Source: a virus. Taken from it: 64,000 nucleotides of DNA. Positions 1-64,000 of the stretch are shown here, one piece after another. Every line of letters starts with the position of its first letter. Position 1 is the first letter of the stretch. The DNA lies in the IMG/VR virus record IMGVR_UViG_3300025889_000115, positions 1 to 64,000 of that record. The stretch is one strand, 5' to 3'. The notes under the pieces were generated by a model that saw only the letters and a program-made list of their open reading frames with translations, was not told the origin of the DNA and did no database searches. A program made the position numbers and the translations under genes.

Positions 1-1
1 T

Positions 2-1000
2 AACGGCGGCAGGATTATGCTGTTGTCGGCTGAGAACCCGGACGCCCTTCGAGGCATCTACCTTGATGAGTGTGTCTTCGACGAGTTTGGCATGCAGAAC
101 CCGAGGGTATGGGGGGAGGTTGTGAGACCGGCACTGTCTGACAGGCAGGGCTCGGCATGTTTTTTGGGAACCCCGGCGGGCCACAATCATTTTTTTGATT
201 TGCTGGAAACGGCCAAGGGGCAGTTAGCCGAGGGCAGCAGCGACTGGTACTACAAGATTTGCAAGGCCAGTGAGACAGGGATTGTGCGCCCAGAGGAACT
301 TGAGGCGGCTCAGGCGCAGATGACGCCGGAGCAATACGAGCAGGAATACGAGTGTTCATTCACCGCAGCGATTATTGGCGCGTATTATGGTAAGCTCTTG
401 GCGGATGCTGATGACAATGGCCGTGTGACGCGGGTGCCTTATGACCCGGCCTATCCAGTTCATACGGCCTGGGACTTGGGTATCAACGACTCGACAGCCA
501 TCTGGTTTGCGCAAGTGTTTCGCGGGGGCGCGGTAAATGTTATTGATTATTACGAGAGTTCTGGCGTTGGTCTCGACCATTATGCAGATATACTCTCAAA
601 GAAAGACTATACGTATGGCGACCACCTCGCTCCTCACGACATTGAGGTCCGTGAGTTGGGCTCGGGTAAAAGCCGCTGGGAAACGGCTTATACGCTGGGA
701 ATCAAATTCAGGGTCATCCCGAAAATGAAGGTGGCAGATGGCATTAACGCTGCGCGTATGTTAATACCTAAATGTTACTTTGACCGCGACAACTGCGGCG
801 AAGGTCTTGAGATGCTAAGACAATACCGGCAGGAATGGGATGAGAAGCGTAAATCCTTTAGGGACCATCCAAGACATGACTATACGAGCCATGCAGCGGA
901 TGCTTTCCGTTATCTTGCTGTTGGTCTTGAAAACCGAGCAGTCATGTCTCGTCCTCCGCAGCAGATTGCGCAGATGGAATACAACCCTTTCACGCTATAG
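2..1000 (+). CDS. terL: Terminase large subunit, unit A (5' end cut by window edge)
   Basis: This is the packaging motor ATPase/nuclease that pumps phage DNA into proheads. The reading frame is open from the first bases. By alignment with the complete copy at 35194-36480, the first 96 residues, including the Walker A motif, lie outside the window. Visible parts are the Walker B region IYLDE, the LGTP coupling motif, the nuclease-domain aspartate motif WDLGIND and the C-terminal acidic motif ADAFRY. By eye it differs from the unit B copy at about 25 of 332 positions. The stop codon is followed after 9 bp by the next head-operon gene. Confidence 0.95.
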   Translation, partial: NGGRIMLLSAENPDALRGIYLDECVFDEFGMQNPRVWGEVVRPALSDRQGSACFLGTPAGHNHFFDLLETAKGQLAEGSSDWYYKICKASETGIVRPEELEAAQAQMTPEQYEQEYECSFTAAIIGAYYGKLLADADDNGRVTRVPYDPAYPVHTAWDLGINDSTAIWFAQVFRGGAVNVIDYYESSGVGLDHYADILSKKDYTYGDHLAPHDIEVRELGSGKSRWETAYTLGIKFRVIPKMKVADGINAARMLIPKCYFDRDNCGEGLEMLRQYRQEWDEKRKSFRDHPRHDYTSHAADAFRYLAVGLENRAVMSRPPQQIAQMEYNPFTL

Positions 1001-1009
1001 AGGCAACTG

Positions 1010-1453
1010 ATGACTGAAAAGGTAAGTACAAGCGCTGGCCCTTCCGGTAGACAGCCTGCTTTCCCCACCCCTACGGGGGTAGCTTTGAGCGCCATTGGAA
1101 GGTTTTCGAGGGAGCGCCAAGCCAAGATTCTAAAGGATGACCCGACGGCAGAAGTGGTACGCGATGCCAGTGGCAAGCAAGTTGGCGTTGTACACAAGGG
1201 CTTATTCGGCGGAAGGGTTTATAGCGGTCGGCCTGAGTTTGACCCGATTAGTGGTGGCCAAACCCAACGTGATGAACAAGCTACGATTATTAGCGCCCCA
1301 GAAACCACTCCAGAGCCAGAAGTCACCCCAGAGGTTACGCCGGAGATTGTTCCTGATGACCTCATGGGTAGCACAGAGCGCGGTCGCCGTCGCAGCAAGC
1401 GTCTTGGTGGTGCTGGCACTCTGCTTGAAGGCGGAGGCGCACTCTATGAATGA
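1010..1453 (+). CDS. Head-operon protein of unknown function, C-terminal LLEGGG tail
   Basis: 147 residues. The middle is low-complexity, with TPEVTPEVTPE-type repeats, followed by a basic stretch (RGRRRSKR) and the C-terminal tag GTLLEGGGALYE. The unit B counterpart at 36490-37194 is longer (234 aa) with an unrelated N-terminal part but the same Pro/Glu repeat and C-terminal tag. The C-terminus is therefore the conserved functional part. It sits between terL and the portal gene, which suggests a head assembly or connector accessory. I recognise no family. Confidence 0.75.
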   Translation: MTEKVSTSAGPSGRQPAFPTPTGVALSAIGRFSRERQAKILKDDPTAEVVRDASGKQVGVVHKGLFGGRVYSGRPEFDPISGGQTQRDEQATIISAPETTPEPEVTPEVTPEIVPDDLMGSTERGRRRSKRLGGAGTLLEGGGALYE

Positions 1454-2411
1454 GGCCATGCCAACAGTGTTGCCTGAAACATCGCCGCGCAGAGGGATTT
1501 TGCGTCTTCTGTCAGACCGCGAAAGTGCAGGCGGCACAGACAGAACAACAATGAGCAAGGACGACGGGAAGCGCACACGCGGAACATACCACATCACACT
1601 AGAAGCAGCGCAAGAGCATGCCCAAGAGTTTCCCTTTCTTAATAGATACAAAGGCTTAAGTGACCAAAACAGAGATAGCTTTGCGCAGTACATGATTGAA
1701 AACCCAGAAACAGAAACAAAACTGGCAAGGGCCGTTTTGGATAAAAAATATGCAGAGCTTGAGGCGGCGGGTGTTAGCCTTTCTCAACTTAGAGAATTTG
1801 AAAGGGATGCTCTGGGCTTATTGTTTTTTAATGCTGGCACTGGCAAGTTTACAAGATTAAAAAGAAATTTATCTGCGCTAACAAAGTATAGGGCAAAATT
1901 TGGAGAAACCCCTACACCAGAGCAAGCAGATATCTTGGAAAGGTTACGAATTGCTAGTGCCGGAGAAATGGATGCAATTAACGCACAAGTGATTGTGGAG
2001 CAGGAAGACGGAACCAAGATTTCTGAAAGAAAACCCGTCCGGGGGTTGGCAATAAGACAGCTATCAACACAAGACTACTTTTTAACAGGGGAAGACACGT
2101 TTAAGTCATACTATCCGGGCGGAACCCGCGCTGAAAGCGTAAGAACCACAAACAAAGCCAAGCAGCTTATTGACGCTTCTAACCAGCGCGGCCAAGCAGC
2201 TTTTGAAGGCGCTTTGCCATATATAAAAATGGATGCGGCCCGAGAAGATTCCCAAGGGATTCTTTCTGTGACTGTAAACGAAAAAGACGAATTGTCAGAC
2301 GATGCTCAGTACAGGCTGGTAAACACTGAACTTGACGGCATCCCAGAGCTATCGCCACCACCAGACGCCATGCTTTTTGCTGGCCCGCAAACTGAAACAC
2401 CGCAACCGTAG
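1446..2411 (+). CDS. Unit A-specific protein, possible lysozyme-superfamily domain
   Basis: 321 residues starting at ATG 1446, which overlaps the previous stop by 8 bp. It has no counterpart in unit B, where the flanking genes abut. Residues about 20-75 contain RLLSDRES, then GTYHIT, then GLSDQNRDSFAQYM. This order resembles lysozyme-superfamily lytic enzymes such as lambda R: a catalytic Glu after a helix, a G-x-Y-x-I/L-T turn, then a helix beginning S-x-x-x-Q/R-D. The assignment is inferred from motif spacing only. The C-terminal half is unrecognised. The stretch 1640-1960 is visibly more AT-rich than its surroundings, consistent with recent acquisition. A virion-associated or relocated muralytic enzyme is one possibility; an unrelated cargo gene is equally open. 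Confidence 0.55.
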   Translation: MNEAMPTVLPETSPRRGILRLLSDRESAGGTDRTTMSKDDGKRTRGTYHITLEAAQEHAQEFPFLNRYKGLSDQNRDSFAQYMIENPETETKLARAVLDKKYAELEAAGVSLSQLREFERDALGLLFFNAGTGKFTRLKRNLSALTKYRAKFGETPTPEQADILERLRIASAGEMDAINAQVIVEQEDGTKISERKPVRGLAIRQLSTQDYFLTGEDTFKSYYPGGTRAESVRTTNKAKQLIDASNQRGQAAFEGALPYIKMDAAREDSQGILSVTVNEKDELSDDAQYRLVNTELDGIPELSPPPDAMLFAGPQTETPQP

Positions 2412-2424
2412 CCAAGAGGGTATT

Positions 2425-2634
2425 ATGAGCTTTTTAACCCCGTCTGCACCACCACCGCCACCTCCTCCTCCGCCTCCTCCTCCGGAGCCTGACCTTGGCC
2501 GCGCCCGTGTTTTGGCAGAAGAAGCCGAAACCCAAGCCCGTGCAAGACGCAAGGGAAGGGGTGCTACGATTGTTGCTGGCGCTTTGGGTGATACGACAGA
2601 GACTAAAACTGGCACACCGACATTGATGGGTTAG
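2425..2634 (+). CDS. Small head-operon protein with polyproline run
   Basis: 69 residues. It starts MSFLTPS and then has a run of 12 prolines, followed by EPDLGRARVLAEEAE (probably helical), a basic patch (RARRKGRG), and ends PTLMG. The ATG at 2425 is preceded by AAGAGGG. The unit B copy (37204-37410) keeps both ends but has a shorter Pro run broken by Thr. Its place immediately upstream of the portal in both units suggests a small virion or connector factor; the function is unknown. Confidence 0.8.
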   Translation: MSFLTPSAPPPPPPPPPPPPEPDLGRARVLAEEAETQARARRKGRGATIVAGALGDTTETKTGTPTLMG

Positions 2635-2636
2635 CT

Positions 2637-4223
2637 ATGAACAAAGCATCCGAACACGTTAAACGCTTCGATTACCTCAAGAGCCGCAGAGATAACTGGG
2701 ACACGCATTACCAGGAACTTGCGGACTATATGCTGCCCCGAAAGGCAGACATTGTGAAGAAGCGGTCTCGCGGTGAAAAGCGCATGGAGCTTATCTATGA
2801 TGGCACTGCGCTTCAATCCATCGACCTAATGGCAGCTTTCCTGCACGGGATGCTGACCAGCGGGGCATCGCCTTGGTTCCACTTGGATGTCAAGGACGAA
2901 ATGATTAACCGCGATGACGATGTTCGTGAATGGCTGCAAGACACCAGCATGCGTATGATGCAGGCCTTCCAGCGGTCAAACTTTGAGACTGAGGTGCATG
3001 AAGCGTATGTGGACTTGGTTGTGTTTGGCACAGCCTGCATGTTCTGCGAGATGGACCGCAAGAACTTACGGTTTAGCACCCGCCACATTTCTGAATATTA
3101 TGTTCAGGAAGACCAGTATGGCATGGTCAACACGGTCTACCGGCTTTACAAGATGACAGCCACACAGGCTGTAGAGCGCTTTGGTCTTGAGCGTGTCGGT
3201 GACTTTATCCGCAAGAAGCACGAGAAGAACGGCGACGAAGAGATAGAAATCCTTCACGCAGTAATGCCACGCACCGACCGCGATGTAACCGCGCCGGACA
3301 ATATGAACATGCCGTTCATGTCGGTGTATGTTTGCAAGGCTACCGGGATGGAGATTTCACAAGGTGGCTTTGAAGAACTGCCCTATGTTGTGCCTCGCTT
3401 CCTGAAAGCTACCGGCGAAGTGATGGGCCGCAGCCCTGCAATGACAGCGCTGCCTGACGTTAAGATGTTGAATCTTATGTCAAAAACCATCATCCAAGCG
3501 GCTCAGAAGCAGATTGACCCGCCGTTGCTGGTGCCTGATGACGGCTTCTTGCTACCTATTCGCACCCAGCCCGGTGGCCTAAACTTTTTCCGTTCCGGCT
3601 CCCGCGAGACGATTACGCCGCTGAACACGGGTGCCAACATTCCTATTGGTCTGAACATGGAAGAACAGCGCCGCACCGCTATTCGCCAAGCGTTCTATGT
3701 TGACCAGATTCTGACTGCTGGCTCTCCGCAGATGACTGCGACAGAGGTGATTCAAAGGCAGGAAGAGCGCATGAGGGTCATTGGCCCCGTGCTGGGCAGG
3801 CTCATGAATGAGATGCTTCGCCCGCTGATTGACCGTGTGTTTGCGCTGATGTTGCGCAACGACATGCTGGCACCGGCACCTGAAATCCTCCAAGGTCGTG
3901 ACATTGATATTGAGTATGTCTCACCGCTGGCACGAGCGCAGAAATCAAGCAGCCTGAACAACACCATGCGGGCGCTTGAGATTCTCCTGCCTCTGGCGCA
4001 GAGCTTGCCGGTTGGCGACCACATCGACCCTGATGGGTTAGTCCGCCACGTCACAGATTCACTTGGTGTCCCGAAAGCCACACTCAGGTCGCAGCGTGAA
4101 GTAAACGAAACTCGTGAAGCGCGAGCGCAAGCAGAGCAAGAGGCTATGCAGCGCCAGCGTGACCAAGAGGATGTTTACACAACAGCGCAGGCTGCACAGG
4201 CCGTGAGGATGGTTCAGTCGTGA
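2637..4223 (+). CDS. Portal (T7-type head-tail connector protein)
   Basis: 528 residues. It forms the dodecameric ring at the portal vertex through which DNA is packaged and ejected. The sequence has the features of the podoviral head-to-tail connector family: an N-terminal helical region with the KSRRDNWDTHYQELADYMLPR segment, the MLTSGASPWFHL motif, a MTATEV motif in the stem/crown region, and a Gln/Ala-rich C-terminal tail. It starts 2 bp after the previous stop and its end overlaps the next gene through GTGA. The unit B copy (529 aa) is closely similar throughout. Confidence 0.95.
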   Translation: MNKASEHVKRFDYLKSRRDNWDTHYQELADYMLPRKADIVKKRSRGEKRMELIYDGTALQSIDLMAAFLHGMLTSGASPWFHLDVKDEMINRDDDVREWLQDTSMRMMQAFQRSNFETEVHEAYVDLVVFGTACMFCEMDRKNLRFSTRHISEYYVQEDQYGMVNTVYRLYKMTATQAVERFGLERVGDFIRKKHEKNGDEEIEILHAVMPRTDRDVTAPDNMNMPFMSVYVCKATGMEISQGGFEELPYVVPRFLKATGEVMGRSPAMTALPDVKMLNLMSKTIIQAAQKQIDPPLLVPDDGFLLPIRTQPGGLNFFRSGSRETITPLNTGANIPIGLNMEEQRRTAIRQAFYVDQILTAGSPQMTATEVIQRQEERMRVIGPVLGRLMNEMLRPLIDRVFALMLRNDMLAPAPEILQGRDIDIEYVSPLARAQKSSSLNNTMRALEILLPLAQSLPVGDHIDPDGLVRHVTDSLGVPKATLRSQREVNETREARAQAEQEAMQRQRDQEDVYTTAQAAQAVRMVQS

Positions 4224-4420
4224 AGGACATAGAAAAGCTAAAGCATATGTACAAAGAGACCTTTGAGACCGAGGGCGGTCAGAAGGTCTTGCGAGACTTG
4301 GAGGCCCGTGCGAATTGGAGGGCGTCCAGCTATGTGGCTGGCGATGCAAACGCCACCGCATTTGAAGAGGGCAAACGCGCTGTCCTGCTTCACATCCACA
4401 ACATGATGACACAGGAGTAA
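4220..4420 (+). CDS. Small conserved protein between portal and scaffold (Bbp19-like)
   Basis: 66 residues, with a GTG start overlapping the portal stop (GTGA), which suggests translational coupling. The pattern is LKHMYxETF, GQKVLRDLEAR, NATAFEEGKRAVLLHIHNMM. This resembles the short Bbp19-type proteins found at this place in podovirus head operons. The unit B copy at 38999-39199 has the same length. Its role is unknown, probably in head assembly. Confidence 0.8.
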   Translation: MKDIEKLKHMYKETFETEGGQKVLRDLEARANWRASSYVAGDANATAFEEGKRAVLLHIHNMMTQE

Positions 4421-4422
4421 CA

Positions 4423-5259
4423 ATGTCAGAGGAAGCTATCGAACAGGTAGCCCAGCCTGAAACTACACTGATGGAAACCCCAGCAGAGGTAGCACAGGGC
4501 GGGTCTGGTAACGAGTTCCTATCCACTATACCGGAGGATTTGCGTGACCACCCAAGCCTGGGGCCAATTAAGGATGTCGAGAACCTCGCTCGTTCTTATG
4601 TAAACGCACAAAGACTGATTGGCGCGGACAAACTGCCGATGCCAGTCAACCCAACAGCCGAAGACCTTGACAACATCTATAGCCGTCTTGGCCGTCCAGA
4701 AAGTGCGGATGGCTATGAAATTGCAGTTGATGGCAACATTGTGACCGAAGATGTTGCAAAGTCTTACGCTGATGTAGCGCATAATCTGCGCCTAACCCCA
4801 GACCAAGCTAACGGTGTGCTGGAATATTACCGCGCTATGGTTCAGGAGTCCGGGCAACTAAGCGAAGCAGCGGAAACGCAACAACGCGCAAGCACTGAAA
4901 CAGCACTCCGCAAGGAGTGGGGCGACGAGTTTGATGTGCGCATCGAAGACGCGGGCAAGATTGCCAAGCAGTTTGGCAGCGGCGAGTTGCTTGAAATGCG
5001 TTTGGACGATGGGACAAAAGTGGGCAACCATCCTGACTTTATCAGGGCTTTTGCCAAGATGGCCGAGTTCCGTTCCAGCGTAACCAGCGAAGATACCGTC
5101 GCTGACAACGCCATTAGCAGCACAATGTCCCGCCGTGAGGCGCAAGCTGAAATTGAAAGCATTATGTCTTCGCCAGTCTACACTGACCGCAAGAATGTGG
5201 TCGGCAGACAGCAAGCCATTGACCGCGTTCAAGAGCTAATGGAAATGGTTCATGGATGA
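4423..5259 (+). CDS. Capsid scaffolding protein
   Basis: 278 residues, acidic and helix-rich, between portal and coat genes, where podoviruses encode the internal scaffold that guides prohead assembly. Typical family features are an N-terminal acidic Ala/Glu region, DHPSL-PIKDVENLARSYVNAQRLIGADK around residue 40-70, and a Gln/Glu-rich middle. A short C-terminal helix with basic residues (GRQQAIDRVQELM) is the likely coat-binding end. The unit B homologue at 39202-40068 is 10 residues longer. Confidence 0.88.
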   Translation: MSEEAIEQVAQPETTLMETPAEVAQGGSGNEFLSTIPEDLRDHPSLGPIKDVENLARSYVNAQRLIGADKLPMPVNPTAEDLDNIYSRLGRPESADGYEIAVDGNIVTEDVAKSYADVAHNLRLTPDQANGVLEYYRAMVQESGQLSEAAETQQRASTETALRKEWGDEFDVRIEDAGKIAKQFGSGELLEMRLDDGTKVGNHPDFIRAFAKMAEFRSSVTSEDTVADNAISSTMSRREAQAEIESIMSSPVYTDRKNVVGRQQAIDRVQELMEMVHG

Positions 5260-5506
5260 CAAAACAGAGCTTAGGCTTGAATGTTTGCGCCTCGCACTTG
5301 AGTATGGTACTCAAAGAGACGTACTAAATCCCCACCTACTCGCAGATACATACTACGAGTGGGTGACGCAGGGTAGCGGGCAAGCCCGTCCTGCCGACAA
5401 CCGGAAAGACGGTGGCCGCAAGCAGGCCCGAAAAGCCAGGAGTGTCCGCGAGGGTAGCACACCGCAACTTACTGTAAACGCAACTGTAGAGAAGGAGGTA
5501 GGCTAA
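5252..5506 (+). CDS. Small conserved protein upstream of coat gene
   Basis: 84 residues, overlapping the scaffold gene by 8 bp and the coat gene by 1 bp (TAATG). The N-terminal half is a helical LRLECLRLALEYGT segment. The C-terminal half is basic (ADNRKDGGRKQARKARSVREGSTP). The unit B copy is 80 aa with the same two halves. Conserved position and synteny support a real gene, but its function is unknown. Confidence 0.78.
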   Translation: MDDKTELRLECLRLALEYGTQRDVLNPHLLADTYYEWVTQGSGQARPADNRKDGGRKQARKARSVREGSTPQLTVNATVEKEVG

Positions 5507-6405
5507 TGTCTACTCAAGTAACTACGGCATTTGTGCAACAGTATTCTGCAAACGTGCAGATGCTCTCACAGCAGATGGGTTCCCGTCTGCGTGACGCAGT
5601 ACGCATTGAGAATGTTGTTGGTAAAAATGCCTTCATCGACCAAATCGGTCTGGCCACGGCGCAGCTTCGCACCTCCCGCCATGCCGACACTCCCCAGCTT
5701 GACACTCCGCATGAGCGGCGTCGTCTGAGCCTGGCTGACTACGAGTATGCTGACCTGATTGATGACCAGGACAAAATCCGCATGCTCATCGACCCGACTT
5801 CATCCTACGCACAAGCCGCAGCAGCAGCTATGGGTCGTGCAATGGATGACGTTGTTATCACCGCCGCTCTTGGCACAGCCTCCACTGGCGAAACCGGCAG
5901 CAGCACTGAGGCAGCGTTTAGCGCCTCTGACGACAACTACATCGTAAACGGCAACACCAACCTGACCCTCGCAAAGCTGCGTCAGGCCAAGGAACTGCTG
6001 GATGCCGGTGACGTTGACCCGTCGATTCCTCGTTACTTTGCCGCTGGCCCAAGCCAGATTCAGAATCTGCTGGCTGACACCACGGTAACTTCGAGCGACT
6101 TCAACACTGTAAAGGCTCTGGTACAGGGCGAACTCGACACCTTCATGGGCTTCAAGTTCATCATGACCAACCGCCTGAACACCACTGATGACGCAGAAAC
6201 TGCTGCATCTGGTGACGTTCGCAAGTGTTTCGCTTGGGCCGAGGATGGCATTACTCTGGGTATTGGCAAGGATGTATCTGCCCGCATCGACGAGCGTTCC
6301 GACAAAGGTTACGCGACTCAGGTGTACTACTGCATGAGCATCGGCGCGGTACGCATGGAGAAGGCCAAAGTCGTTCAAGTCAACTGTGACGAAACCCCGG
6401 ACTAA
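5506..6405 (+). CDS. Major capsid (coat) protein
   Basis: 299 residues. The gene follows scaffold and has the strongest ribosome-binding site of the head operon (GAAGGAGG upstream of TAATG). The N-terminal sequence MSTQVTTAFVQQYSANVQ, with RLRD, YEYADLIDDQDK and an Ala-rich YAQAAAAAMGRAMDD helix, is typical of the HK97-fold coat proteins of this podovirus group (resembling Phage_capsid_2). The unit B copy is 297 aa and very similar. It differs mainly in a surface-like segment around residues 125-150. Confidence 0.92.
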   Translation: MSTQVTTAFVQQYSANVQMLSQQMGSRLRDAVRIENVVGKNAFIDQIGLATAQLRTSRHADTPQLDTPHERRRLSLADYEYADLIDDQDKIRMLIDPTSSYAQAAAAAMGRAMDDVVITAALGTASTGETGSSTEAAFSASDDNYIVNGNTNLTLAKLRQAKELLDAGDVDPSIPRYFAAGPSQIQNLLADTTVTSSDFNTVKALVQGELDTFMGFKFIMTNRLNTTDDAETAASGDVRKCFAWAEDGITLGIGKDVSARIDERSDKGYATQVYYCMSIGAVRMEKAKVVQVNCDETPD

Positions 6406-6419
6406 GAGGAGATTAACAA

Positions 6420-6917
6420 ATGGCTAACGTAAACACTTCTCTTGTTTCCAACTTTGAGGCTAGCCCTCAAGTCATGAACGCATCGCATGAACTGCACGGT
6501 GTAAAGCGTGTAGCACAGGGAACCATCGCCCTTGCGGCTGGTGACCTGTCTGCATCCGACACTGTGATGCTTGCACCGGTTCCAACCAATGCTAGCATTA
6601 CCAGCATCAAGCTGTTCAACGATGACCTTGACTCTGGGACCACCAACACTTGCGATGTCGGCATCTACAACACCGATGGTGTCGCTGTTGACGATGATGC
6701 GTATGCGTCGGCTATCACCGACCTTCGCGCTGCTGTCACCGTCGGCACTGAGGTTGCGTTTGAAGCCCGCGACATCAACGCAATGGGCCAGCAAGTTTGG
6801 GAAGATGCAGGCGCATCGTCTGACCCAGGCGGTTACTACTACATCGGACTCGTGTTCGATGGAGCCGGTGACACTGGCGGCGACCTCTCGTTCATCATCG
6901 AGTACGTCGTAAACTAA
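6420..6917 (+). CDS. Putative head decoration / minor head protein
   Basis: 165 residues, starting 15 bp after the coat gene with an AGAGGAG site. It is beta-rich, with many alternating Thr/Val/Asp segments and the C-terminal motif FIIEYVV. The position directly after the coat gene and before the terminator fits a capsid decoration or fibre protein. The unit B homologue (159 aa) keeps both ends but varies in the middle, as expected for an exposed protein. The function is inferred from context. Confidence 0.65.
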   Translation: MANVNTSLVSNFEASPQVMNASHELHGVKRVAQGTIALAAGDLSASDTVMLAPVPTNASITSIKLFNDDLDSGTTNTCDVGIYNTDGVAVDDDAYASAITDLRAAVTVGTEVAFEARDINAMGQQVWEDAGASSDPGGYYYIGLVFDGAGDTGGDLSFIIEYVVN

Positions 6918-6925
6918 CCAGTTAA

Positions 6926-6953
6926 GGGGGGCGGCTTGAAACCGCCCTCCTTT
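6926..6953 (+). terminator. Intrinsic terminator after the head genes
   Basis: A 9-bp GC stem (GGGGGGCGG pairing with CCGCCCTCC, one G-T pair) with a 7-base loop is followed by a short T run. The same hairpin with a compensated loop occurs at 41709-41736 in unit B. It probably attenuates transcription after coat and decoration genes, giving more head than tail message. Confidence 0.7.
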
Positions 6954-6978
6954 CACTCCTGCTCCGGGGGATAGATGG

Positions 6979-7329
6979 GTGGAGTACAACAGAGATTTCC
7001 GGTACGACCTCAAGGTGGGTCAAATGGCGGAAAGTTGGCTTGCTGACGTACTGCAAACCCGAACCATCGAAATAAAAAGAGACTTCAAAGCTTCACGAAC
7101 CGGCAGAGTGTTTGTGGAGTTTTTTTCTAGGGGGAAGCCGTCAGGCATAGACACAACAGAGGCGGACTTCTGGGCGTTTATCATAGACGGCGAAACTGTG
7201 GTAATATTGCCAACAGCACGGCTCAAGGAGCTTGTGCAGGAAGCAAAGGACGAAGGCAAGATTTGGAAGGGCGGTGACTCTAACACGAGCCAAGGCGTCC
7301 TGATTGATTTGGAAAGGTTAGTAAAGTAA
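6979..7329 (+). CDS. Putative PD-(D/E)XK-like nuclease in the tail operon
   Basis: 116 residues with a GTG start; unit B uses GTG at the same place. The segment TIEIKRD gives an acidic-x-Lys signature. It is followed by VFVEF and a GKPSGI-TTEADFWAF segment, a pattern seen in small phage proteins with a restriction-endonuclease-like fold. Catalytic competence is unproven. It overlaps the tail tubular A start through TAATG. A role in DNA processing during packaging or injection is possible. Confidence 0.6.
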   Translation: MEYNRDFRYDLKVGQMAESWLADVLQTRTIEIKRDFKASRTGRVFVEFFSRGKPSGIDTTEADFWAFIIDGETVVILPTARLKELVQEAKDEGKIWKGGDSNTSQGVLIDLERLVK

Positions 7330-7925: not shown

Positions 7926-7927
7926 GC

Positions 7928-17662: not shown

Positions 17663-17668
17663 TTAAGG

Positions 17669-17686: not shown

Positions 17687-17692
17687 TGACGC

Positions 17693-18988: not shown

Positions 18989-18996
18989 GGGCGACC

Positions 18997-46094: not shown

Positions 46095-46096
46095 CT

Positions 46097-52032: not shown

Positions 52033-52057
52033 GGTTCCAGCAGAGCCGCAACTGCGG

Positions 52058-52079: not shown

Positions 52080-52081
52080 GC

Positions 52082-55054: not shown

Positions 55055-55066
55055 GGAGAACGCATC

Positions 55067-56134: not shown

Positions 56135-56136
56135 AT

Positions 56137-56480: not shown

Positions 56481-56481
56481 T

Positions 56482-56667: not shown

Positions 56668-57098
56668 TGCTTGCTGAACTCGCTGCCGCCAACGCCGCCT
56701 TTGCCGTAATCAAGCAAGCCATCCAGAATGGCAAGGACATAGCCTCTGCTGGCAGTGCCGTTGCAGAGTTTGTGGGTGCCAAAGAGAAGCTGCAAGCCAA
56801 GGCCCAGAAGAAGGGTGGCGGCTCTGACCTCGAAGAGTTTATGGCTCTGGAAAAGCTCAAGCAACAGGAAGACGAACTCAAAACCATTATGATTTACGCT
56901 GGTCGGCCCGGGCTATGGAGCGACTGGCAGAGGTTTCAGGCCAAGGCGCGGGTTGCTAGGCGCGAGGCAGTTGTTGCATCCGCAGCCAGACGCAAGAAGA
57001 TTATAGACATCACAATCATCGGGGCATTTGTGCTGTGCTTTCTTGCCATTCTAGGCGCACTTTTTGCCCTAATCTTACACCATCAAGGGAGGTTATAA
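56667..57098 (+). CDS. Membrane-anchored helical protein, unit B
   Basis: 143 residues, homologous to 24715-25149: the same Ala-rich N-terminus, RPGLWSDWQRFQAKARVARREA block and a C-terminal transmembrane helix. In unit B it sits upstream of the holins, while in unit A it lies between two basic-protein genes, so the gene has moved. Function unknown. Confidence 0.75.
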   Translation: MLAELAAANAAFAVIKQAIQNGKDIASAGSAVAEFVGAKEKLQAKAQKKGGGSDLEEFMALEKLKQQEDELKTIMIYAGRPGLWSDWQRFQAKARVARREAVVASAARRKKIIDITIIGAFVLCFLAILGALFALILHHQGRL

Positions 57099-57304
57099 TG
57101 GATATTACAATGGAGCGCTTCTTGGCGTGGAGGATACTGCCGCGTCTTATGATGTTCGTGATGACATTCATGTATATCCGCGTCATTGAGTGGGGCATGT
57201 CCCTCGAAGACATCACAACCCAGCAGAGTGCCATGGTCAGTGTCGTCAGCGGTGCCATGACTGGTGCTTTTGCTGTGTGGCTTGGAAGCGAGAAAAAGGC
57301 ATGA
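57098..57304 (+). CDS. Holin-like protein with two membrane segments
   Basis: 68 residues from ATG 57098 (GGGAGG upstream, TAATG overlap). Two hydrophobic stretches (LPRLMMFVMTFMYIRVIEW and MVSVVSGAMTGAFAVWLG) and a charged C-terminus (SEKKA). Size, topology and position upstream of the lysozyme suit a class II holin. Confidence 0.65.
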   Translation: MDITMERFLAWRILPRLMMFVMTFMYIRVIEWGMSLEDITTQQSAMVSVVSGAMTGAFAVWLGSEKKA

Positions 57305-57477
57305 ATGTGGCCTGGTCATTAGTGCTGGTCACTGCGGTGTCAGCCACGGAATATAATGTTGAGCCTATTACCACAACTGAGACGATGGCTGAGTGTTACT
57401 TCCAAAGTACCGAGGTTAATTGGCAGTCACACATACACAACAATCAAGAGCTTCTTTGCATAAGGATAGAGGAATGA
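57301..57477 (+). CDS. 58-residue secreted-type protein
   Basis: MNVAWSLVLVTAVSATEYNVEP has a short signal-peptide-like start with an SAT cleavage-like site. The mature part has two Cys (C33, C54), possibly a disulfide. ATGA-coupled at both ends between two holin-like genes. A periplasmic antiholin-type regulator is one idea; not established. Confidence 0.58.
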   Translation: MNVAWSLVLVTAVSATEYNVEPITTTETMAECYFQSTEVNWQSHIHNNQELLCIRIEE

Positions 57478-57854
57478 TTCAAGCACTGATTCCCATCGTT
57501 GGCGAACTGGCCGGTGGCTGGCTCAAGGGCAAGGCCGCAGAGAAAGCCGCCAAGTCTCAGGTGAAGGTTGCCAAGGCCGAGGCAGAGGCCGAGGTAATGA
57601 AGACAGCCGCCACGCATGATTCCAAGTGGGAACTCATCATGGCGCAGTCCACACAGACATCCCTCAAAGACGAAATCGTCACGGTGATTGTGCTTATTCC
57701 TGTCGTGCTGGTGTTCATCCCCGGCATGGAAGATGTGGTGCAGAATGGCTTTGACCGGCTAAATGAACTACCCGACTGGTACCAATATTTGGTATTCTTG
57801 GTGTGCAGTGCCGCCCTTGGCATCAAAGGCTTGGATAAGTTCAGGAAGAAATGA
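57474..57854 (+). CDS. GTA-type 3-TM holin-like protein
   Basis: 126 residues from ATG 57474. An N-terminal amphipathic part (GELAGGWLKGKAAEKAAK) and an Ala/Glu helix lead to TSLKDEIVTVIVLIPVVLVFIPG and a second hydrophobic stretch (WYQYLVFLVCSAALGIKG). The LKDE segment before the membrane helices is characteristic of the holin family seen in gene transfer agents and related phages. No unit A counterpart. Confidence 0.75.
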   Translation: MIQALIPIVGELAGGWLKGKAAEKAAKSQVKVAKAEAEAEVMKTAATHDSKWELIMAQSTQTSLKDEIVTVIVLIPVVLVFIPGMEDVVQNGFDRLNELPDWYQYLVFLVCSAALGIKGLDKFRKK

Positions 57855-58048
57855 TGGCCCGCAAACCTGTTAAAACAAAGTCCCGCGTGAACGAGGCTGG
57901 TAACTACACCAAGCCTACTATGCGCAAAAGACTTTTCTCCAAAATCAAAGCTGGCGGCAAAGGTGGCAAGCCGGGGCAGTGGTCTGCCCGCAAGGCGCAG
58001 ATGCTGGCCAAGCAGTACAAGTCAGCAGGGGGCGGCTATAAGAACTGA
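57851..58048 (+). CDS. Small basic protein (VNEAGNYTKPTMRKRLF family), unit B
   Basis: 65 residues; ATGATG start overlapping the holin stop. From residue 12 on it is nearly identical to 24511-24714 (GGKPGQWSARKAQMLAKQY). The N-terminal dozen residues differ. Unknown function. Confidence 0.78.
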   Translation: MMARKPVKTKSRVNEAGNYTKPTMRKRLFSKIKAGGKGGKPGQWSARKAQMLAKQYKSAGGGYKN

Positions 58049-58308
58049 TGGCACTCAAGAAATCACAACGAAGCCTGAAGTCTTGGACAAAGCAGAAATG
58101 GAGAACCAAGAGTGGTAAGCCGTCCACGCAGGGCCCGAAAGCTACCGGGGAGCGCTATCTACCGTCTAGAGCCATTAAAGCCCTCTCACCCAAAGAATAT
58201 GCGGCGACCACGAGAGCGAAGAGGAAGGCTACTAGAGCCGGGAAACAAGTTAGCAAGCAACCAAAACGAATTGCGCAGAAGACAAGGCGCTACAGGAAGA
58301 CAAAATGA
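58048..58308 (+). CDS. Small basic protein (KKSQRSLKSWTKQKWRTKSGKPS family), unit B
   Basis: 86 residues, the most conserved protein of the cluster between the two units, with only a few substitutions compared with 25161-25421. TGATG-coupled to the preceding basic gene and ATGA-coupled to the lysozyme gene. Confidence 0.78.
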   Translation: MALKKSQRSLKSWTKQKWRTKSGKPSTQGPKATGERYLPSRAIKALSPKEYAATTRAKRKATRAGKQVSKQPKRIAQKTRRYRKTK

Positions 58309-58748
58309 ATCTAGTGAAACTGTGTGACGACCTCAAAGCCGACGAGGGGAGTGTCAACGAGATTTACATTTGCCCGGCAGGGCATCCCACTTTTGGCGTA
58401 GGCCATATGATTACCAAGAAAGACCCTGAACATGGTGAGCCAGTTGGCACTAGCATTAGCGATGAACGGGTACGGGAAGCCTTCGAGGCAGACATCACCA
58501 TCACGCTACAAGATTGTGAGAAACTATATCCTGACTTCGCTGACTTGCCAGAAGAGGTGCAGCTAATCATCGCCAACATGCTCTTCAACATGGGCTTGCC
58601 GCGCCTGTCCAAGTTCCGGGGCATGAAGGCTGCGGTGGACGACCGTGACTGGAACCGCGCAGCGGATGAGATGGTGGACAGTTTGTGGTATAACCAAGTG
58701 ACAGCGCGGGCAGACCGTCTGGTGCAACGTATGAAAGAGGTAGTGTGA
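58305..58748 (+). CDS. Endolysin, T4-type lysozyme (GH24)
   Basis: 147 residues. It cleaves the glycan strand of peptidoglycan at the end of infection. Glu14 (in ADEG) and Thr29 (in HPTFGVGH) have the 15-residue spacing of the T4 lysozyme catalytic Glu and Thr. The intermediate Asp position is Cys23 (ICPAG), a variation that T4 lysozyme is known to tolerate. No signal peptide or SAR domain, so it depends on a holin. No homologue at the unit A locus. Confidence 0.9.
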   Translation: MNLVKLCDDLKADEGSVNEIYICPAGHPTFGVGHMITKKDPEHGEPVGTSISDERVREAFEADITITLQDCEKLYPDFADLPEEVQLIIANMLFNMGLPRLSKFRGMKAAVDDRDWNRAADEMVDSLWYNQVTARADRLVQRMKEVV

Positions 58749-58894
58749 TGCCTGGTGCAAAGTATTCATCGAAGCAGAAAAAGATGGCGGCTGTAGCTTC
58801 GCCGCGTAACAAGATTACTGGTGCTGACTTCGCAAAGCTGCGAGGCAAGAAGAAGCCGACCATGGGTGCGGCCAAGAAGAAGCGCCGTGGCTAA
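58748..58894 (+). CDS. 48-residue basic protein, unit B
   Basis: MPGAKYSSKQKKMAAVASPRNKITGADFAKLRGKKKP and a further basic tail. Counterpart of 25421-25537 with a C-terminal extension. TGATG-coupled to the lysozyme gene. Confidence 0.7.
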   Translation: MPGAKYSSKQKKMAAVASPRNKITGADFAKLRGKKKPTMGAAKKKRRG

Positions 58895-59198
58895 GACTCC
58901 GGCATGGCAGCGCAAGGCTGGCAAGAACCCGAAGGGTGGCTTGAACGAGGCTGGGCGTCGTTCTGCCAAGAAGCAGGGCATGAACCTCAAGCGTCCTGTG
59001 AAGAAGGGCGACAACCCGCGCCGTGCATCCTTCCTTGCCCGCATGGCTGGAATGAAAGGCCCGGAGCGTGACGCAAAGGGCAAGCCGACCAGGCTCTTGC
59101 TCTCTCTACGGGCATGGGGTGCCTCTAGCAAGGCTGACGCTAGGAAGAAGGCGTCAGGCATATCCAAGCGGAACAAGGCCAAGAAAGCCAGAGCGTGA
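58887..59198 (+). CDS. Basic protein (KTPAWQRKAGKNPKGGLN family), unit B
   Basis: 103 residues from GTG 58887, aligned with the unit A start. The upstream in-frame extension is the previous gene in another frame. Nearly identical to 25537-25848. Function unknown. Confidence 0.78.
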   Translation: MAKTPAWQRKAGKNPKGGLNEAGRRSAKKQGMNLKRPVKKGDNPRRASFLARMAGMKGPERDAKGKPTRLLLSLRAWGASSKADARKKASGISKRNKAKKARA

Positions 59199-59320
59199 TG
59201 CCTCGCAACCCGCAAGCCCGCAGCCTGATGAGCAAGCTGTTCAAGCCGCGCATCCTCAAGCCCAAGAAGGGCAAGGGTAGTTACTCCCGTAAAAAAGAAC
59301 CCCGCCGAAGCGGGGCTTAG
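59198..59320 (+). CDS. 40-residue basic protein ending the late operon, unit B
   Basis: PRNPQARSLMSKLFKPRILKPKKGKGSYSRKK followed by a different tail (EPRRSGA). Its last codons form the terminator stem. Confidence 0.7.
   Translation: MPRNPQARSLMSKLFKPRILKPKKGKGSYSRKKEPRRSGA
59291..59315 (-). terminator. Intrinsic terminator for the leftward operon, unit B
   Basis: On the minus strand: CCCCGC-TTCG-GCGGGG, a stable UUCG tetraloop stem, followed by TTCTTTTTT. It overlaps the end of the last late gene and will stop transcripts coming from the recombination operon. Confidence 0.8.
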
Positions 59321-59346
59321 TGGCTAGGTTACCTAGCTGGGAGGAA

Positions 59347-59580
59347 CTACTCAATTCTCCAAATTCTGTACCCAGTACCGTTAGGTTCCTTGCGTGAGCG
59401 GTACTCCATGCCTCTGTACCTCATAGCCGCGCGAACCTTCTCGAAATCACGCTCGGTTGTCGCAACTAGGCTGTCACCAACCTCCATACCAGAAAGTATA
59501 TTCCACCTGTCGCGTCTGCCGCCGGGTATTGGTATGCCTTTTTCAAGCACCACTTGATTGCACTCTGCGCACTTTTTCAA
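59347..59580 (-). CDS. Zinc-ribbon protein with GD-YRIWR domain, unit B
   Basis: 77 residues from TTG 59580. This start has AGGAGG 5 bp upstream, exactly as the GTG start of the unit A copy. CAEC motif, then MEVGDSLVATTERDFEKVRAAM and GTGYRIWRIE. Confidence 0.7.
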   Translation of the reverse strand: MKKCAECNQVVLEKGIPIPGGRRDRWNILSGMEVGDSLVATTERDFEKVRAAMRYRGMEYRSRKEPNGTGYRIWRIE

Positions 59581-59731
59581 AGCACCCTCCTGTCTGCGTG
59601 TCATAGCAAAGCTTATGTCCGTTCCCATTCGCAACCCACGTTCCATCCATGACATAATGCTCCTTACCGCAGAACTCACAGTTTAATTTCCTTGTGTCTC
59701 GGTTCTTGGTTTTCGGTTTTCTTTTCCTCAC
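59543..59731 (-). CDS. Small zinc-finger protein, unit B
   Basis: 62 residues from GTG 59731 (GGAGG upstream). The CEFC, LCYD and GGC cysteines align with the unit A copy at 26232; the basic N-terminus (RKRKPKTKNRDTRK) differs in length. Overlaps both neighbours. Confidence 0.65.
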   Translation of the reverse strand: MRKRKPKTKNRDTRKLNCEFCGKEHYVMDGTWVANGNGHKLCYDTQTGGCFEKVRRVQSSGA

Positions 59732-59885
59732 GTTGGGCCTCCAATCCCGCATTGAGGAAGCGCCCGGCCATCCAGAGTAGCTGTGTTGAGTCCATGTCTC
59801 TGTAGTAGGACACGCCCTCTATACTAACCAGCACTCCTTCTGGCCTAGGCACTACCAAGATTTGCTTAGAAGGGGATGTCATCAT
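59676..59885 (-). CDS. Small conserved protein of the recombination operon, unit B
   Basis: 69 residues from ATG 59885, inside the last codons of the SSB-like gene, as in unit A. SKQILVVPRPEGVLVSIEG and the C-terminal charged helix are conserved. Confidence 0.7.
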   Translation of the reverse strand: MMTSPSKQILVVPRPEGVLVSIEGVSYYRDMDSTQLLWMAGRFLNAGLEAQREEKKTENQEPRHKEIKL

Positions 59886-60198
59886 CCAAAGACATCTTTG
59901 GCTTACGCGCAGTTTCCTGAACGCCAGCCGCTTCTGCCACCTGTTTGAATCCACCTTGCGAAACGTCGTCAGCTACGCTGTCTGTGCCGGTGTATTCAAT
60001 AGGCTGTTCGACCTTTAACGTGATGCTGCCGTCGTCGTTCTCGTACACGCGCACAGAATACTGTACGTCATGCCTGAGATGCACATCCGCTGGCGCACCG
60101 TCCTTGTACGGCGTCCACTTGCTGTTGCCAAACTTGGCAGCACCCTTGTCGTTGGGCCAAGCCCGGAACTGGGTGATTGGTTTCCACTGTCTTGCCAT
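59866..60198 (-). CDS. Single-stranded DNA-binding-like protein, unit B
   Basis: 110 residues, the same length as 26558-26890, ending SLDDDIPF. Central strands YSVRVYENDDGSITLKVEQP are identical; substitutions cluster in the linker before the acidic tail, as usual for SSB-type proteins. Confidence 0.65.
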   Translation of the reverse strand: MARQWKPITQFRAWPNDKGAAKFGNSKWTPYKDGAPADVHLRHDVQYSVRVYENDDGSITLKVEQPIEYTGTDSVADDVSQGGFKQVAEAAGVQETARKPKMSLDDDIPF

Positions 60199-60200
60199 GA

Positions 60201-60857
60201 TTAACCTCCAAGGCTCTGTTCGTGCTTTTGAAATAGGTCAAAGAGCGCCTGCGCACGTTGAGGATTGCGCTTCTTGACATCCATGATGAGGTGCTTGTTC
60301 TCAGCGAACAGGTTATGGACACCGCCAACCATCTTTATGTTCTCCAGCCTAGACTTCACCTGAACGTATAGATGACGGTCAGATTCTTCATGGGCATCAG
60401 GCGACGTCTCGACAGGGGATGGAGGGTTCCCGCTGGAGCCGCCGCCTGAACTGGATGTCTCCAAGTTCTGCTGCTTCCTCGGCACAGCCTCCATTTCATT
60501 AGCACTGGCATACTCACCACCGGACAGACCGATGCTTGCCAGCGCCCTACCAATGGCAGATGTCTCACAGTTTTCCAAGGCGCTTGTCTTGTTGACGTTG
60601 CCTTGGCCCCTGATTTCCTCTGCCATCCCTGAGCCAACGATGTGACCATTATGGTCTGTGACAACGGCTTTTACAACCACACGCTGCCCGTCGTCCACGA
60701 GAATCTCCGTGTCAACGCCGCACTCAAGGCCGAAGACGGTTCGGAACGCCTCCATGCGGTGGACAACCTGGGTGTACTTCTTGCCACCCCGTTGCGCTAT
60801 CCCGTGGGATTTGTGCAATTCGGAGACAAGCCCCATTGCATCAATCATCTTGCTCAT
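60201..60857 (-). CDS. ERF-like single-strand annealing recombinase, unit B
   Basis: 218 residues, homologous to 26893-27549. The core NKTSALENCETSAIGRALAS-GLSGGEYAS is identical, while the C-terminal 60 residues after the Ser/Pro linker are diverged. Confidence 0.8.
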   Translation of the reverse strand: MSKMIDAMGLVSELHKSHGIAQRGGKKYTQVVHRMEAFRTVFGLECGVDTEILVDDGQRVVVKAVVTDHNGHIVGSGMAEEIRGQGNVNKTSALENCETSAIGRALASIGLSGGEYASANEMEAVPRKQQNLETSSSGGGSSGNPPSPVETSPDAHEESDRHLYVQVKSRLENIKMVGGVHNLFAENKHLIMDVKKRNPQRAQALFDLFQKHEQSLGG

Positions 60858-61005
60858 CTGTTACCTTTCCTTTGTGCAAATGGTCTGCCATCAAGTGCAT
60901 GAAGACAGTCCAAGCCGCCTTCATGTCACTCATCTCTGCCTGTAGCTCGGCTAGCCTTTTCTCAAGCCGGTCTACCTGCTGTTGTAGTTCACCAACGTCA
61001 GGCAT
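60841..61005 (-). CDS. 54-residue coiled-coil protein, unit B
   Basis: VGELQQQVDRLEKRLAELQAEM is a canonical heptad coiled coil, followed by the conserved DMKAAWTVFMHLMADHLHKGKV. ATG 61005 overlaps the upstream stop; the end overlaps the annealing gene by 17 bp. Longer upstream readings are out-of-frame copies of the neighbour. Confidence 0.68.
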   Translation of the reverse strand: MPDVGELQQQVDRLEKRLAELQAEMSDMKAAWTVFMHLMADHLHKGKVTDEQDD

Positions 61006-61255
61006 TGGCAGCTTTGGGCAGACTGCGCCCGTCAACCCGCCACACCCGGAACCCTTCGTCAACACGCCGTGAAACATAGGCTTTGTTATGCTTCCACAGT
61101 GTCTTGATAATCCGCCTGTACACAACCTCGTTGGGACACAGTACGCTGTCGCCGGGCTTCATCTGCAAGGCAAGTTCGCTTTCGCTACTCATGGTGCGGC
61201 CGGAACCGGGCTTGCGCTTAGGGATTGAAATGTCACGTTCGATTTTTAGTTTCAT
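60998..61255 (-). CDS. Small conserved protein, GDS-FRVWR domain, unit B
   Basis: 85 residues from ATG 61255 (GGAGGG upstream). KLKIERDISIPKRK, then MKPGDSVLCPNEVVYRRIIKTL and GFRVWRVDG. It lacks the C-terminal 20 residues of the unit A protein. Confidence 0.72.
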   Translation of the reverse strand: MKLKIERDISIPKRKPGSGRTMSSESELALQMKPGDSVLCPNEVVYRRIIKTLWKHNKAYVSRRVDEGFRVWRVDGRSLPKAANA

Positions 61256-61257
61256 AG

Positions 61258-62148
61258 CTAAACCCTCCAAATTTCTCTAGCTATCTTCACGATGTCAGGG
61301 CCATGGCGGCCCGCGATTTGACCAAAGTCCGGCTGGACAAGGCCAAAGAGGTTGCTCCAGTTGCCATTCGCAGCCTTGAGCAAGTTCTGTTGCACCACCC
61401 AGCGCTGCACTACGTCCTGATAAGTTGCCTCTAGGGCTTCAGGCTTTAGTGCGTCGCAGTTTTCGGCGGTGACGATGTTGTAGCCAGCAGGGGTCACAAA
61501 CAGGAGGCCTGGCGCATCACCTGTCGCCTTCCAATAGACTGCCTGTTGCATGATTTGCTGGGGAAGCGGTTCGGTCTTAGGCTTTGGGTTGCGCCAAGTG
61601 CGGGTGCCGTCTTTCTTCGGTGGGTTTCGCATTGGCAAGCTGCACTTCAGGTCAACTTGTCGGCCAGACCCCGTGAAGTCTTGGAACAGGATGACCGGGA
61701 CATCCAGCTTTTCCTCAATGTAGAGCCGCTGGTATTCGCCCTCGAACTCGTCGTCTCCGTAGAACTCCTTGATGCCGTCAACAGCGTATCTCGCCATCTC
61801 CGGTATGACTTCCTTGAAGTGGTGGTACTCTTCTGCATCCTTTCCCCCGTCCCAGTCACGCGGCTTGTAAAACTCGAACTCAGTCATGCCTTTACGCACA
61901 GCTTCGTCAAAGTCTATTGGCTCCTTGCGGCCATAGATAGGGCTGTAGTCGTGGACGCCCAGTGCCATGTCCGCTATGCTTTGAACTATCTGACCAGCAC
62001 GGGGCCGGGCCGCAAAGGGGAAATTAATCTTGTGTTCTTTACGCAAGAACAACTTCAGGACATGCTCGTCAATCGGCTGCGTTGCACCCGACGCGCTGAC
62101 ATGCTGCCGTCCGAAGAACAGGCTGTAATCAGGGATTGTTCTTTCCAT
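61258..62148 (-). CDS. PD-(D/E)XK exonuclease (RecB/Cas4-like), unit B
   Basis: 296 residues from ATG 62148 (GGAGGG 4 bp upstream). The motifs DFTGSGRQVDLK and QQAVY are retained. Together with the annealing and SSB-like genes it forms the second copy of the recombination set. Confidence 0.85.
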   Translation of the reverse strand: MERTIPDYSLFFGRQHVSASGATQPIDEHVLKLFLRKEHKINFPFAARPRAGQIVQSIADMALGVHDYSPIYGRKEPIDFDEAVRKGMTEFEFYKPRDWDGGKDAEEYHHFKEVIPEMARYAVDGIKEFYGDDEFEGEYQRLYIEEKLDVPVILFQDFTGSGRQVDLKCSLPMRNPPKKDGTRTWRNPKPKTEPLPQQIMQQAVYWKATGDAPGLLFVTPAGYNIVTAENCDALKPEALEATYQDVVQRWVVQQNLLKAANGNWSNLFGLVQPDFGQIAGRHGPDIVKIAREIWRV

Positions 62149-62166
62149 GTGACCCTCCATATCCAC

Positions 62167-62195
62167 GTTCTAAACATTTCCAACATAGGTGTCAA
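62167..62195 (-). promoter_or_regulatory. Sigma70-type promoter for the leftward recombination operon, unit B
   Basis: TTGACA, 17-bp spacer, TAGAAC on the minus strand, identical boxes to 28960-28932 with a diverged spacer. Confidence 0.75.
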
Positions 62196-62197
62196 CA

Positions 62198-62401
62198 ATG
62201 TTTTTAGTCTTTGATTCGGATGAGTTGGTTGATTGCGTGAGGTGTGAGGGCAACGGGGTAATCCCCATTGACTTGTATGAGCATAGCGAAATAGGGTTCG
62301 GCATCACCCGTAGTTTTTCTTGTGAGTGTGGGGTGTGTGGAGGCGAGGGTAAACTGATGCCCTATTTTGAAATCGAATATGATTCTGAGGCCAGCGATTG
62401 A
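62198..62401 (+). CDS. Small protein with two CxxCxGxG-type motifs, unit B
   Basis: 67 residues; CVRCEGNG and CGVCGGEG. Homologous to 28963-29160, with an additional Cys in the middle (FSCECG). Its stop overlaps the TTG start of the next gene. Confidence 0.75.
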   Translation: MFLVFDSDELVDCVRCEGNGVIPIDLYEHSEIGFGITRSFSCECGVCGGEGKLMPYFEIEYDSEASD

Positions 62402-62961
62402 TTGTCTGCCGGTACGCGCATCGTGATGACGAGGTGCCGGTGGGGCGGGAGGTTTATCCTCTGGGTGGTTGGCATGGGGCCAAGGGCTATGTGCTATGGA
62501 GTGAAGACATGACCAATGGACGTGCAAAAGGCGCACAATTTGAACGCACTATTGCGAATATGTGCCGTGACTCTCTAGGCTATGAGGCGAAACGAGACCT
62601 CGAACAATACAGAAGCGGTGACCGGGGTGACCTGATTGGGGTGCCTGGCTGGGTCATAGAGTGTAAACGCTACGCCTCGGGCTCGACATACAGAGATGAC
62701 TGGTGGCGGCAAGTGACCAAGGCAGCAGACGTTGCTATGTGTGAGCCTGTCCTCATCTATAAGTATGACCGCCAGCCTATCCGCTGTGTGGTTTTCCTAT
62801 CGGCCATCAACCCAGATTTTTGGGGCAAGGCCGACACTGCCACGGTCAGCTTTGATACGTGGTGCATGATTGTCAGGGAGGGATTGACAGATGAAGAGCG
62901 CAGCCGACATGAGCATGGACGAGTTCCGCAACCTATTGGCCACGGTGACAGCCACGCCTGA
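62398..62961 (+). CDS. PD-(D/E)XK Holliday-junction-resolvase-like nuclease, unit B
   Basis: 187 residues if started at TTG 62398 (TTGA overlap), or 150 residues from ATG 62509, which has GGAG 7 bp upstream. GDRGDLIGV and VIECKRY nuclease signature conserved. The N-terminal CRYAH and GWHGAKGYVLWSE segment is conserved at the protein level with unit A. Confidence 0.8.
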   Translation: MIVCRYAHRDDEVPVGREVYPLGGWHGAKGYVLWSEDMTNGRAKGAQFERTIANMCRDSLGYEAKRDLEQYRSGDRGDLIGVPGWVIECKRYASGSTYRDDWWRQVTKAADVAMCEPVLIYKYDRQPIRCVVFLSAINPDFWGKADTATVSFDTWCMIVREGLTDEERSRHEHGRVPQPIGHGDSHA

Positions 62962-63091
62962 TGTTCCGCCGACTCCGCCCGGGCGTTACCAGCGCAAGGT
63001 AAAGCCGACGGCAGCGCAGCAACCGTTCTGGAACAGGCGCAAGCCGGGTACAAACAAGCGGGCTAAATCGCGTCAGCCTTCTCGCACCTGA
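62891..63091 (+). CDS. Small basic protein downstream of resolvase, unit B
   Basis: 66 residues, GGAGGG upstream, homologous to 29655-29855. YQRKVKPTAAQQPFWNRRKPGTNKR is the conserved part. Overlaps the nuclease gene by 71 bp and the opposing gene by 29 bp. Confidence 0.7.
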   Translation: MKSAADMSMDEFRNLLATVTATPDVPPTPPGRYQRKVKPTAAQQPFWNRRKPGTNKRAKSRQPSRT

Positions 63092-63257
63092 AGTGGGCTT
63101 GCATAGGCGCGGGGAACAGTGGGATGACAGCCTTTGCCATCTCCATGCCCCGTGCGTAGCACTCCTGCTCTGTGTCTTTTAGTCCTGTTGTGTCTTCAAA
63201 CAGGGCGCACTCATTCGGCTGCCCTATTACGCACACCAGTACGAGCGCCTTAAACAT
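63063..63257 (-). CDS. Small secreted-type protein, unit B
   Basis: 64 residues. MFKALVLVCVIGQPNECALFEDTTGL with the same four Cys as the unit A copy and GGAG before the ATG. Unknown function. Confidence 0.6.
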   Translation of the reverse strand: MFKALVLVCVIGQPNECALFEDTTGLKDTEQECYARGMEMAKAVIPLFPAPMQAHFRCEKADAI

Positions 63258-63293
63258 GTCAACGCTCCTTTCTCTTCAAGCCTAGCATTAAGT

Positions 63294-63317
63294 GGGGGCA
63301 TATTGCTAATCGCCCCC
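63294..63317 (-). terminator. Hairpin at the 3' end of the HNH gene, unit B
   Basis: GGGGGC/GCCCCC stem with a 12-base loop, overlapping the stop codon; no U tract. Equivalent to 30058-30081. Confidence 0.3.
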
Positions 63318-64000
63318 CTCCCATACCGGCGGTGTGTGGTCCGGCCCGTAAAACTCTTCCGGCATCTTGTTGCTTTTGGCTAGGTTTTCCTCTGCGGTAA
63401 TCACTTGCAGATTCCACGGCACATGCAGCCCGCAGACCGCTTCTCCGTTGCGCGGATAGTAGTGGTCAACGTGATGCTTTACGCCGGTCTGTCGCGTCTT
63501 TCTCGCTGCCTCTTTGTAAAAGGGGGCAAAGACCTTTGGGTCAATCCCCTTGGGCATTGCTTCCCTCAAGTACCTGCGGCGCAGTTGCGCTTCAAGTTTC
63601 CGCTGCTCCCTGTGTTCGATGTCCTCCGCCCACCGTTCCCGCTGGCGCGTCCGGTGCCGTTCTTTGCGCTTCTGTTTCTTTTCTTCGGGGACATCCACAA
63701 AATAACGCTGGTAGTGTTCGCGATGCAGGTTGGGGTTTTCCTCAAAGCATTTCTTGCGCCACTCCTTGTAACGCTCCCTGCCGCCGCGCTCGTGGTAGTA
63801 TTCGTAATGAGACTGCAAAACTTTGTCGTGGTTCTTACGCTTCCATTTTTTTGAGCCCTCCTTGTGACAAGCTACGCAATGCCCATATGGCAGCATTCTT
63901 TCGGACAGGTGGCCTTTGGGGCAGGGTTTACCATTGAAGTAGAACCGTTGTCCGGCTTTCTCTGCCTCCTGCCGGGTCATTATCTTCTGGCCAATCTTAG
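63306..64000 (-). CDS. HNH endonuclease, unit B (5' end cut by window edge)
   Basis: About 231 codons are visible, open through the right edge and aligned with residues 66-296 of the unit A protein at 30070-30960. The second zinc module ([18 protein letters not shown]), the long charged helix and the HNH core ([27 protein letters not shown]) are present. The ATG at 63980 is internal, not the start. Confidence 0.82.

What the first reader, a model, noticed from the sequence alone, without database searches (positions are those of the whole stretch)
1..64000. Two distinct but related podovirus-type genomes joined head to tail
TerL at 2-1000 and 35194-36480 are close homologues. Every later block recurs in the same order about 33-35.5 kb further on: portal, scaffold, coat, tail tube, recombination operon, resolvase, HNH. 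The copies are not identical, since fibres, gp15/gp16-like genes and lysis genes are different. This is therefore neither a simple duplication nor a circular-genome artefact. It could be tandem prophages, a natural recombinant concatemer, or an assembly join between two co-occurring relatives.
Basis: partly seen in the sequence, partly recalled or inferred. Interest (0 to 1): 0.85.

Follow-up and report, generated by a model that had tools for sequence, protein, structure and literature searches.

The report
Metagenome chimera of two related phages
The apparent 'double phage genome' is almost certainly an assembly artefact: one complete 33-kb aquatic phage genome wrongly glued to most of a related phage, at a 117-base stretch that the two share in an endonuclease gene.

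Summary
The 64,029-base IMG/VR record holds two related podovirus-type gene sets head to tail, with 25 of 35 A genes matching B genes, nearly all in the same order.

The record's last 117 bases repeat 30677-30793 exactly. This is the longest exact match between the halves, and it stops at the record's end. Three IMG/VR contigs from other data sets (L016, L100, G001) run through 64029 straight into 30794 at 99.9-100% identity. So 30794-64029 is one complete, circularly closing genome of 33,236 bp (phage B), assembled elsewhere as a single copy. TerS, the GP88-like gene and everything from about 30.7 kb on belong to B.

A is only 1-30676, an incomplete genome without its own TerS. A near-identical contig (L020) carries a different, A-type region upstream of TerL.

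The join lies in an endonuclease VII/HNH-like gene that also occurs as an isolated island in unrelated contigs, which would explain the shared stretch. No fetched contig supports the A-B join. Both phages are distant, uncultivated relatives of HTVC010P-type pelagiphages (TerL about 52%). Tandem prophages are not supported.

The parts
1..30676 (+). Phage A, incomplete (TerL 5' end, TerS and about 4 kb more are missing)
   Evidence: Supported by other contigs: L084 (24-6489, 100%), L215 (5146-18719, 99.95%), L216 (11685-18067, 99.94%). No contig above 98% identity over about 18.7-30.7 kb.
30677..30793 (.). Join point: 117 bases identical to 63913-64029
   Evidence: Longest exact match between the halves, ending at the record's end.
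30070..30960 (-). Endonuclease VII/HNH-like gene in which A passes into B
   Evidence: PHROG 1035, E=2.5e-19. B's own copy runs across the closure, 891 nt, intact.
30794..64000 (+). Phage B, complete genome of 33,236 bp (to 64029, beyond the window), which closes 64029 to 30794
   Evidence: L016, L100 and G001 cross the closure at 99.9-100% identity.
63913..64000 (.). Second copy of the 117-base stretch (63913-64029); end of the record
2..1000 (+). TerL of A, truncated at its 5' end
   Evidence: 92% amino acid identity to TerL of B.
33493..34641 (-). GP88-like gene of B
   Evidence: Pfam PF17338, E=2.6e-11.
34666..35046 (+). TerS of B (not of A)
   Evidence: Pfam PF20901, E=1.2e-8; contiguous with B in L016 and G001.
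35194..36480 (+). TerL of B, full length
   Evidence: 100% in L003, L004, L005.

Best explanation
The record is a chimeric metagenome contig. Two related podovirus-type phages, each with a genome of about 33-35 kb, carry very similar copies of an endonuclease VII-like gene, and inside it they share 117 identical bases. The assembler walked along phage A to that stretch, crossed into phage B, followed B once round its closed graph, and stopped when it came back to the same 117 bases. The result is 1-30676 = most of A, and 30677-64029 = all of B plus a 117-base overlap. Shown: the overlap, the closure of B in other contigs, and the single-copy arrangement of B and of relatives. Inferred: that the crossing was made by software and not by a real recombinant molecule.
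For: The record's last 117 bases are the longest exact match between the halves. L016, L100 and G001 join 64029 directly to 30794. L020, 99.2% identical to A at 1-3724, has an A-type region upstream of TerL, about 84% like the window's. The A-like contigs G009 and L019 run from late A genes to an A-type TerS and TerL in single-genome order. Relative G013 is a 34,942-bp contig with a 77-bp end repeat, and isolates of the nearest cultivated group are 34-36 kb single genomes. No fetched locus holds the A|B junction; two scans of viral contigs for sequence on its A side found nothing. Chimeras from coexisting viruses with highly similar regions are a known error (PMC5610896).
Against: No reads or coverage were available. 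No contig near-identical to A was found across 30676, so A's true continuation is inferred from relatives at about 92% identity. Records of or very near the window's own genome may be left out of the scans. Some supporting records may be re-assemblies of the same samples.
Confidence: 0.93

Rival explanations
1. A real recombinant phage exists whose genome is A up to about 30.7 kb and then B (a crossover in the endonuclease gene). The contig records that true junction and then runs on round B.
For: Relatives are mosaic: G010 has a B-like TerL with A-like portal and coat, and G012 has an A-like TerL with a B-like portal region. The endonuclease gene appears mobile.
Against: No contig with the junction was found. 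A-like relatives keep an A-type TerS and TerL. The join coincides with the longest exact match between the halves, which also ends the record.
Confidence: 0.05
2. Two related prophages integrated in tandem in a host chromosome, or a natural 64-kb concatemer of two phages.
For: Only the contiguity of the record itself.
Against: B closes on itself in three contigs. The record has no tRNA, no integrase appeared among the 31 proteins scanned, and there are no host flanks. In 84,980 bacterial and archaeal species genomes the TerL scan found only two distant relatives, at 51% and 35%.
Confidence: 0.02

Closest known systems
Chimeric contig of coexisting similar viruses in metagenome assembly (benchmarked in PMC5610896)
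   Same: Two distinct genomes joined in one contig at a stretch of identical sequence; the contig ends where the repeat recurs
   Different: Unusually tidy: one whole closed genome is included, so the chimera imitates a tandem double genome
HTVC010P-type pelagiphages (proposed Ubiqueviridae; PMC10504331)
   Same: TerL 51-52% and portal 57-58% amino acid identity; genome about 33-36 kb; podovirus-type gene set
   Different: Almost no DNA similarity (8% of 5 kb at 65-69%); GC 53%; host unknown

Membership tests
Chimeric metagenome contig | Join lies at a stretch identical in both genomes | tested here: met
   30677-30793 = 63913-64029, 117 of 117
Chimeric metagenome contig | At least one component is found elsewhere without the join, with another continuation | tested here: met
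   B closes 64029 to 30794 in L016, L100 and G001
Chimeric metagenome contig | Reads do not support the join; coverage differs between the parts | not testable with these tools
   No reads or coverage available
Tandem prophages | Integrase, attachment sites and host flanks | tested here: not met
   No tRNA; no integrase among the 31 proteins scanned; no host-like flank in a record that begins and ends inside phage genes. Attachment sites were not searched for separately.
HTVC010P-type phages (proposed Ubiqueviridae) | Related terminase and portal as best cultivated match | tested here: met
   TerL 52%, portal 58%; best hits are all Pelagibacter phages
HTVC010P-type phages (proposed Ubiqueviridae) | Single genome of about 33-36 kb | tested here: met
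   B is 33,236 bp
HTVC010P-type phages (proposed Ubiqueviridae) | SAR11 (Pelagibacter) host | not testable with these tools
   Uncultivated; GC 53% is much higher than SAR11 genomes as known to me
HTVC010P-type phages (proposed Ubiqueviridae) | Family-level placement by whole-genome phylogeny | not tested
   No tree was built

The most novel reading that the evidence does not exclude
The A|B junction is a true recombination junction in nature: an A-type phage acquired the endonuclease-to-TerS side of a B-type phage by exchange within a mobile endonuclease gene.
Probability: 0.05. Interest if true: 0.3.

Novelty: not a real feature. Interest (0 to 1): 0.1.

Why it matters
It removes a false 'double genome' and corrects a public record: the B half can be entered as a complete 33,236-bp genome and A as an incomplete one. 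It also points to a practical hazard. Very similar endonuclease genes shared between co-occurring phages can bridge their assemblies, and a contig end that exactly repeats an internal stretch is a cheap flag for such chimeras.

Tried and rejected
First idea: A and B share the whole single-copy region 30.8-35.5 kb identically (a figure-eight with a 4.7-kb repeat). Rejected as unsupported: the window's start has no exact overlap with 35481 onward, and L020, near-identical to A, carries an A-type TerL start.

Tandem prophages: rejected.

Reading 117 as a particular assembler's k-mer length: left open, because the assembler is unknown.

Search for a contig near-identical to A across 30676: none found. 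The fibre gene at 21901-23130 gave no full-length relative.

Full report
WHAT WAS CHECKED. The window is bases 1-64000 of a 64,029-base IMG/VR record classed as linear. Self-comparison confirms two related gene sets in the same order: TerL at 81% DNA identity, portal to tail at 75%, the recombination operon at 79-84%. Twenty-five of 35 A genes have a B match by protein, from 25% to 93% identity; most internal virion, fibre and lysis genes differ or have no counterpart.

WHERE THE TWO GENOMES MEET. The sequence shows otherwise. Bases 30794-35481 occur only once in the record. The record's last 117 bases (63913-64029) are identical to 30677-30793. This is the longest exact match between the halves: one shared 117-mer, no shared 118-mer. 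A contig that ends exactly where its longest internal repeat recurs is what an assembler is expected to produce on returning to a node of its graph already used (inference).

B IS A COMPLETE GENOME THAT CLOSES ON ITSELF. Three contigs from other IMG/VR data sets cross this point. L016 (9,130 bp, 3300006803_000468) equals 60526-64029 without a mismatch and runs on through 30677-36419 with 6 mismatches in 5,743. L100 (3300025652_001429) equals 53479-64029 at 99.95% and runs on to 32774. G001 (31,242 bp, 3300025759_000418) equals 32798-64029 with 3 mismatches and runs 10 bases past the closure. Together they cover B all the way round: 33,236 bp. Across the closure B's endonuclease gene is intact with 891 nucleotides. 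A more distant relative, G013, is 34,942 bp with a 77-bp exact end repeat, as a complete single copy would be. The nearest cultivated phages are likewise single genomes of about 34-36 kb.

A IS PARTIAL. Window 1-30676 is supported by L084 (24-6489, 100%), L215 (5146-18719, 99.95%) and L216 (11685-18067, 99.94%). L020 is 99.2% identical to 1-3724 and carries an A-type sequence upstream of that point, only about 84% like the window's 35.2-35.5 kb. A therefore has its own TerS side, which is missing here. In the A-like contigs G009 and L019 the late genes lead to an A-type TerS and TerL about 4 kb further on, the usual single-genome order. From this I estimate A at about 34.5-35 kb (inference). 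The stretch from about 18.7 to 30.7 kb has no contig above 98% identity, so A's fibre region and right end rest on this record alone.

WHY THE JOIN IS THERE. It lies in an endonuclease VII/HNH-like gene (30070-30960, PHROG 1035, E=2.5e-19). The A and B copies are 83-100% identical per 100 bases over their last 700 bases, with single stretches at 93, 98 and 100%. The same gene occurs at 87% (L192, L193) and 77-81% (L194, L195, L197) in contigs that show no other match to the window at 200 bases or more, so it looks like a mobile gene. Recent sharing of such a gene between co-occurring phages would supply the identical stretch; that this caused the join is inference. Chimeric contigs from coexisting viruses with highly similar regions are a documented assembly error (PMC5610896).

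RIVALS. Tandem prophages are not supported: no tRNA, no integrase among the proteins scanned, no host flank, and only two distant TerL relatives in the cellular genome collection. A true A/B recombinant remains possible at a low level, because relatives are mosaic (G010, G012). But no fetched contig contains the junction, and scans for its A side were empty. Reads would settle it. Some of the supporting records may be re-assemblies of the same samples, so their independence is not guaranteed.

PLACEMENT. The closest cultivated phages are HTVC010P-type pelagiphages (TerL 52%, portal 58%), for which the family Ubiqueviridae has been proposed (PMC10504331). DNA similarity to them is minimal. With 53% GC the host is probably not SAR11 (inference from general knowledge of SAR11 genomes).

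VERDICT. The gene content is duplicated in the record, but this is not a real genome structure. It is an assembly chimera, joined at 30677-30793, of one incomplete and one complete phage genome.

Noticed in passing
30070-30960; L192, L193, L194, L195, L197: The endonuclease VII-like gene occurs at 77-87% DNA identity in contigs with no other detected similarity to these phages, so it looks like a mobile gene; the A-like contig G009 has no DNA match to it.
   Followed up: partly
G010 (L179-L180), G012 (L181-L182): Related contigs are mosaics of A-like and B-like blocks, for example a B-like TerL (89%) followed by an A-like portal-to-coat block (92%) in G010.
   Followed up: partly
17693-18988 and 19047-20450: Phage A has two neighbouring tail-fibre genes that start with the same kind of N-terminal module (PHROG 1640), where B has one such gene (52082-55054).
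   Followed up: no
52766-53283: Direct repeat inside the tail-fibre gene of B (52766-53052 and 52997-53283, 68% identical).
   Followed up: no
about 19000-24000: The fibre and lysis region of A has almost no close DNA relatives among the fetched contigs, apart from 22828-23889 (94%) in L225, a contig otherwise largely unlike the window.
   Followed up: partly
32798 and 34562 (starts of G001/G002 and of L003/G003): B contigs from different data sets start at the same base, which suggests a recurring strain fork or re-assembly of the same reads.
   Followed up: no
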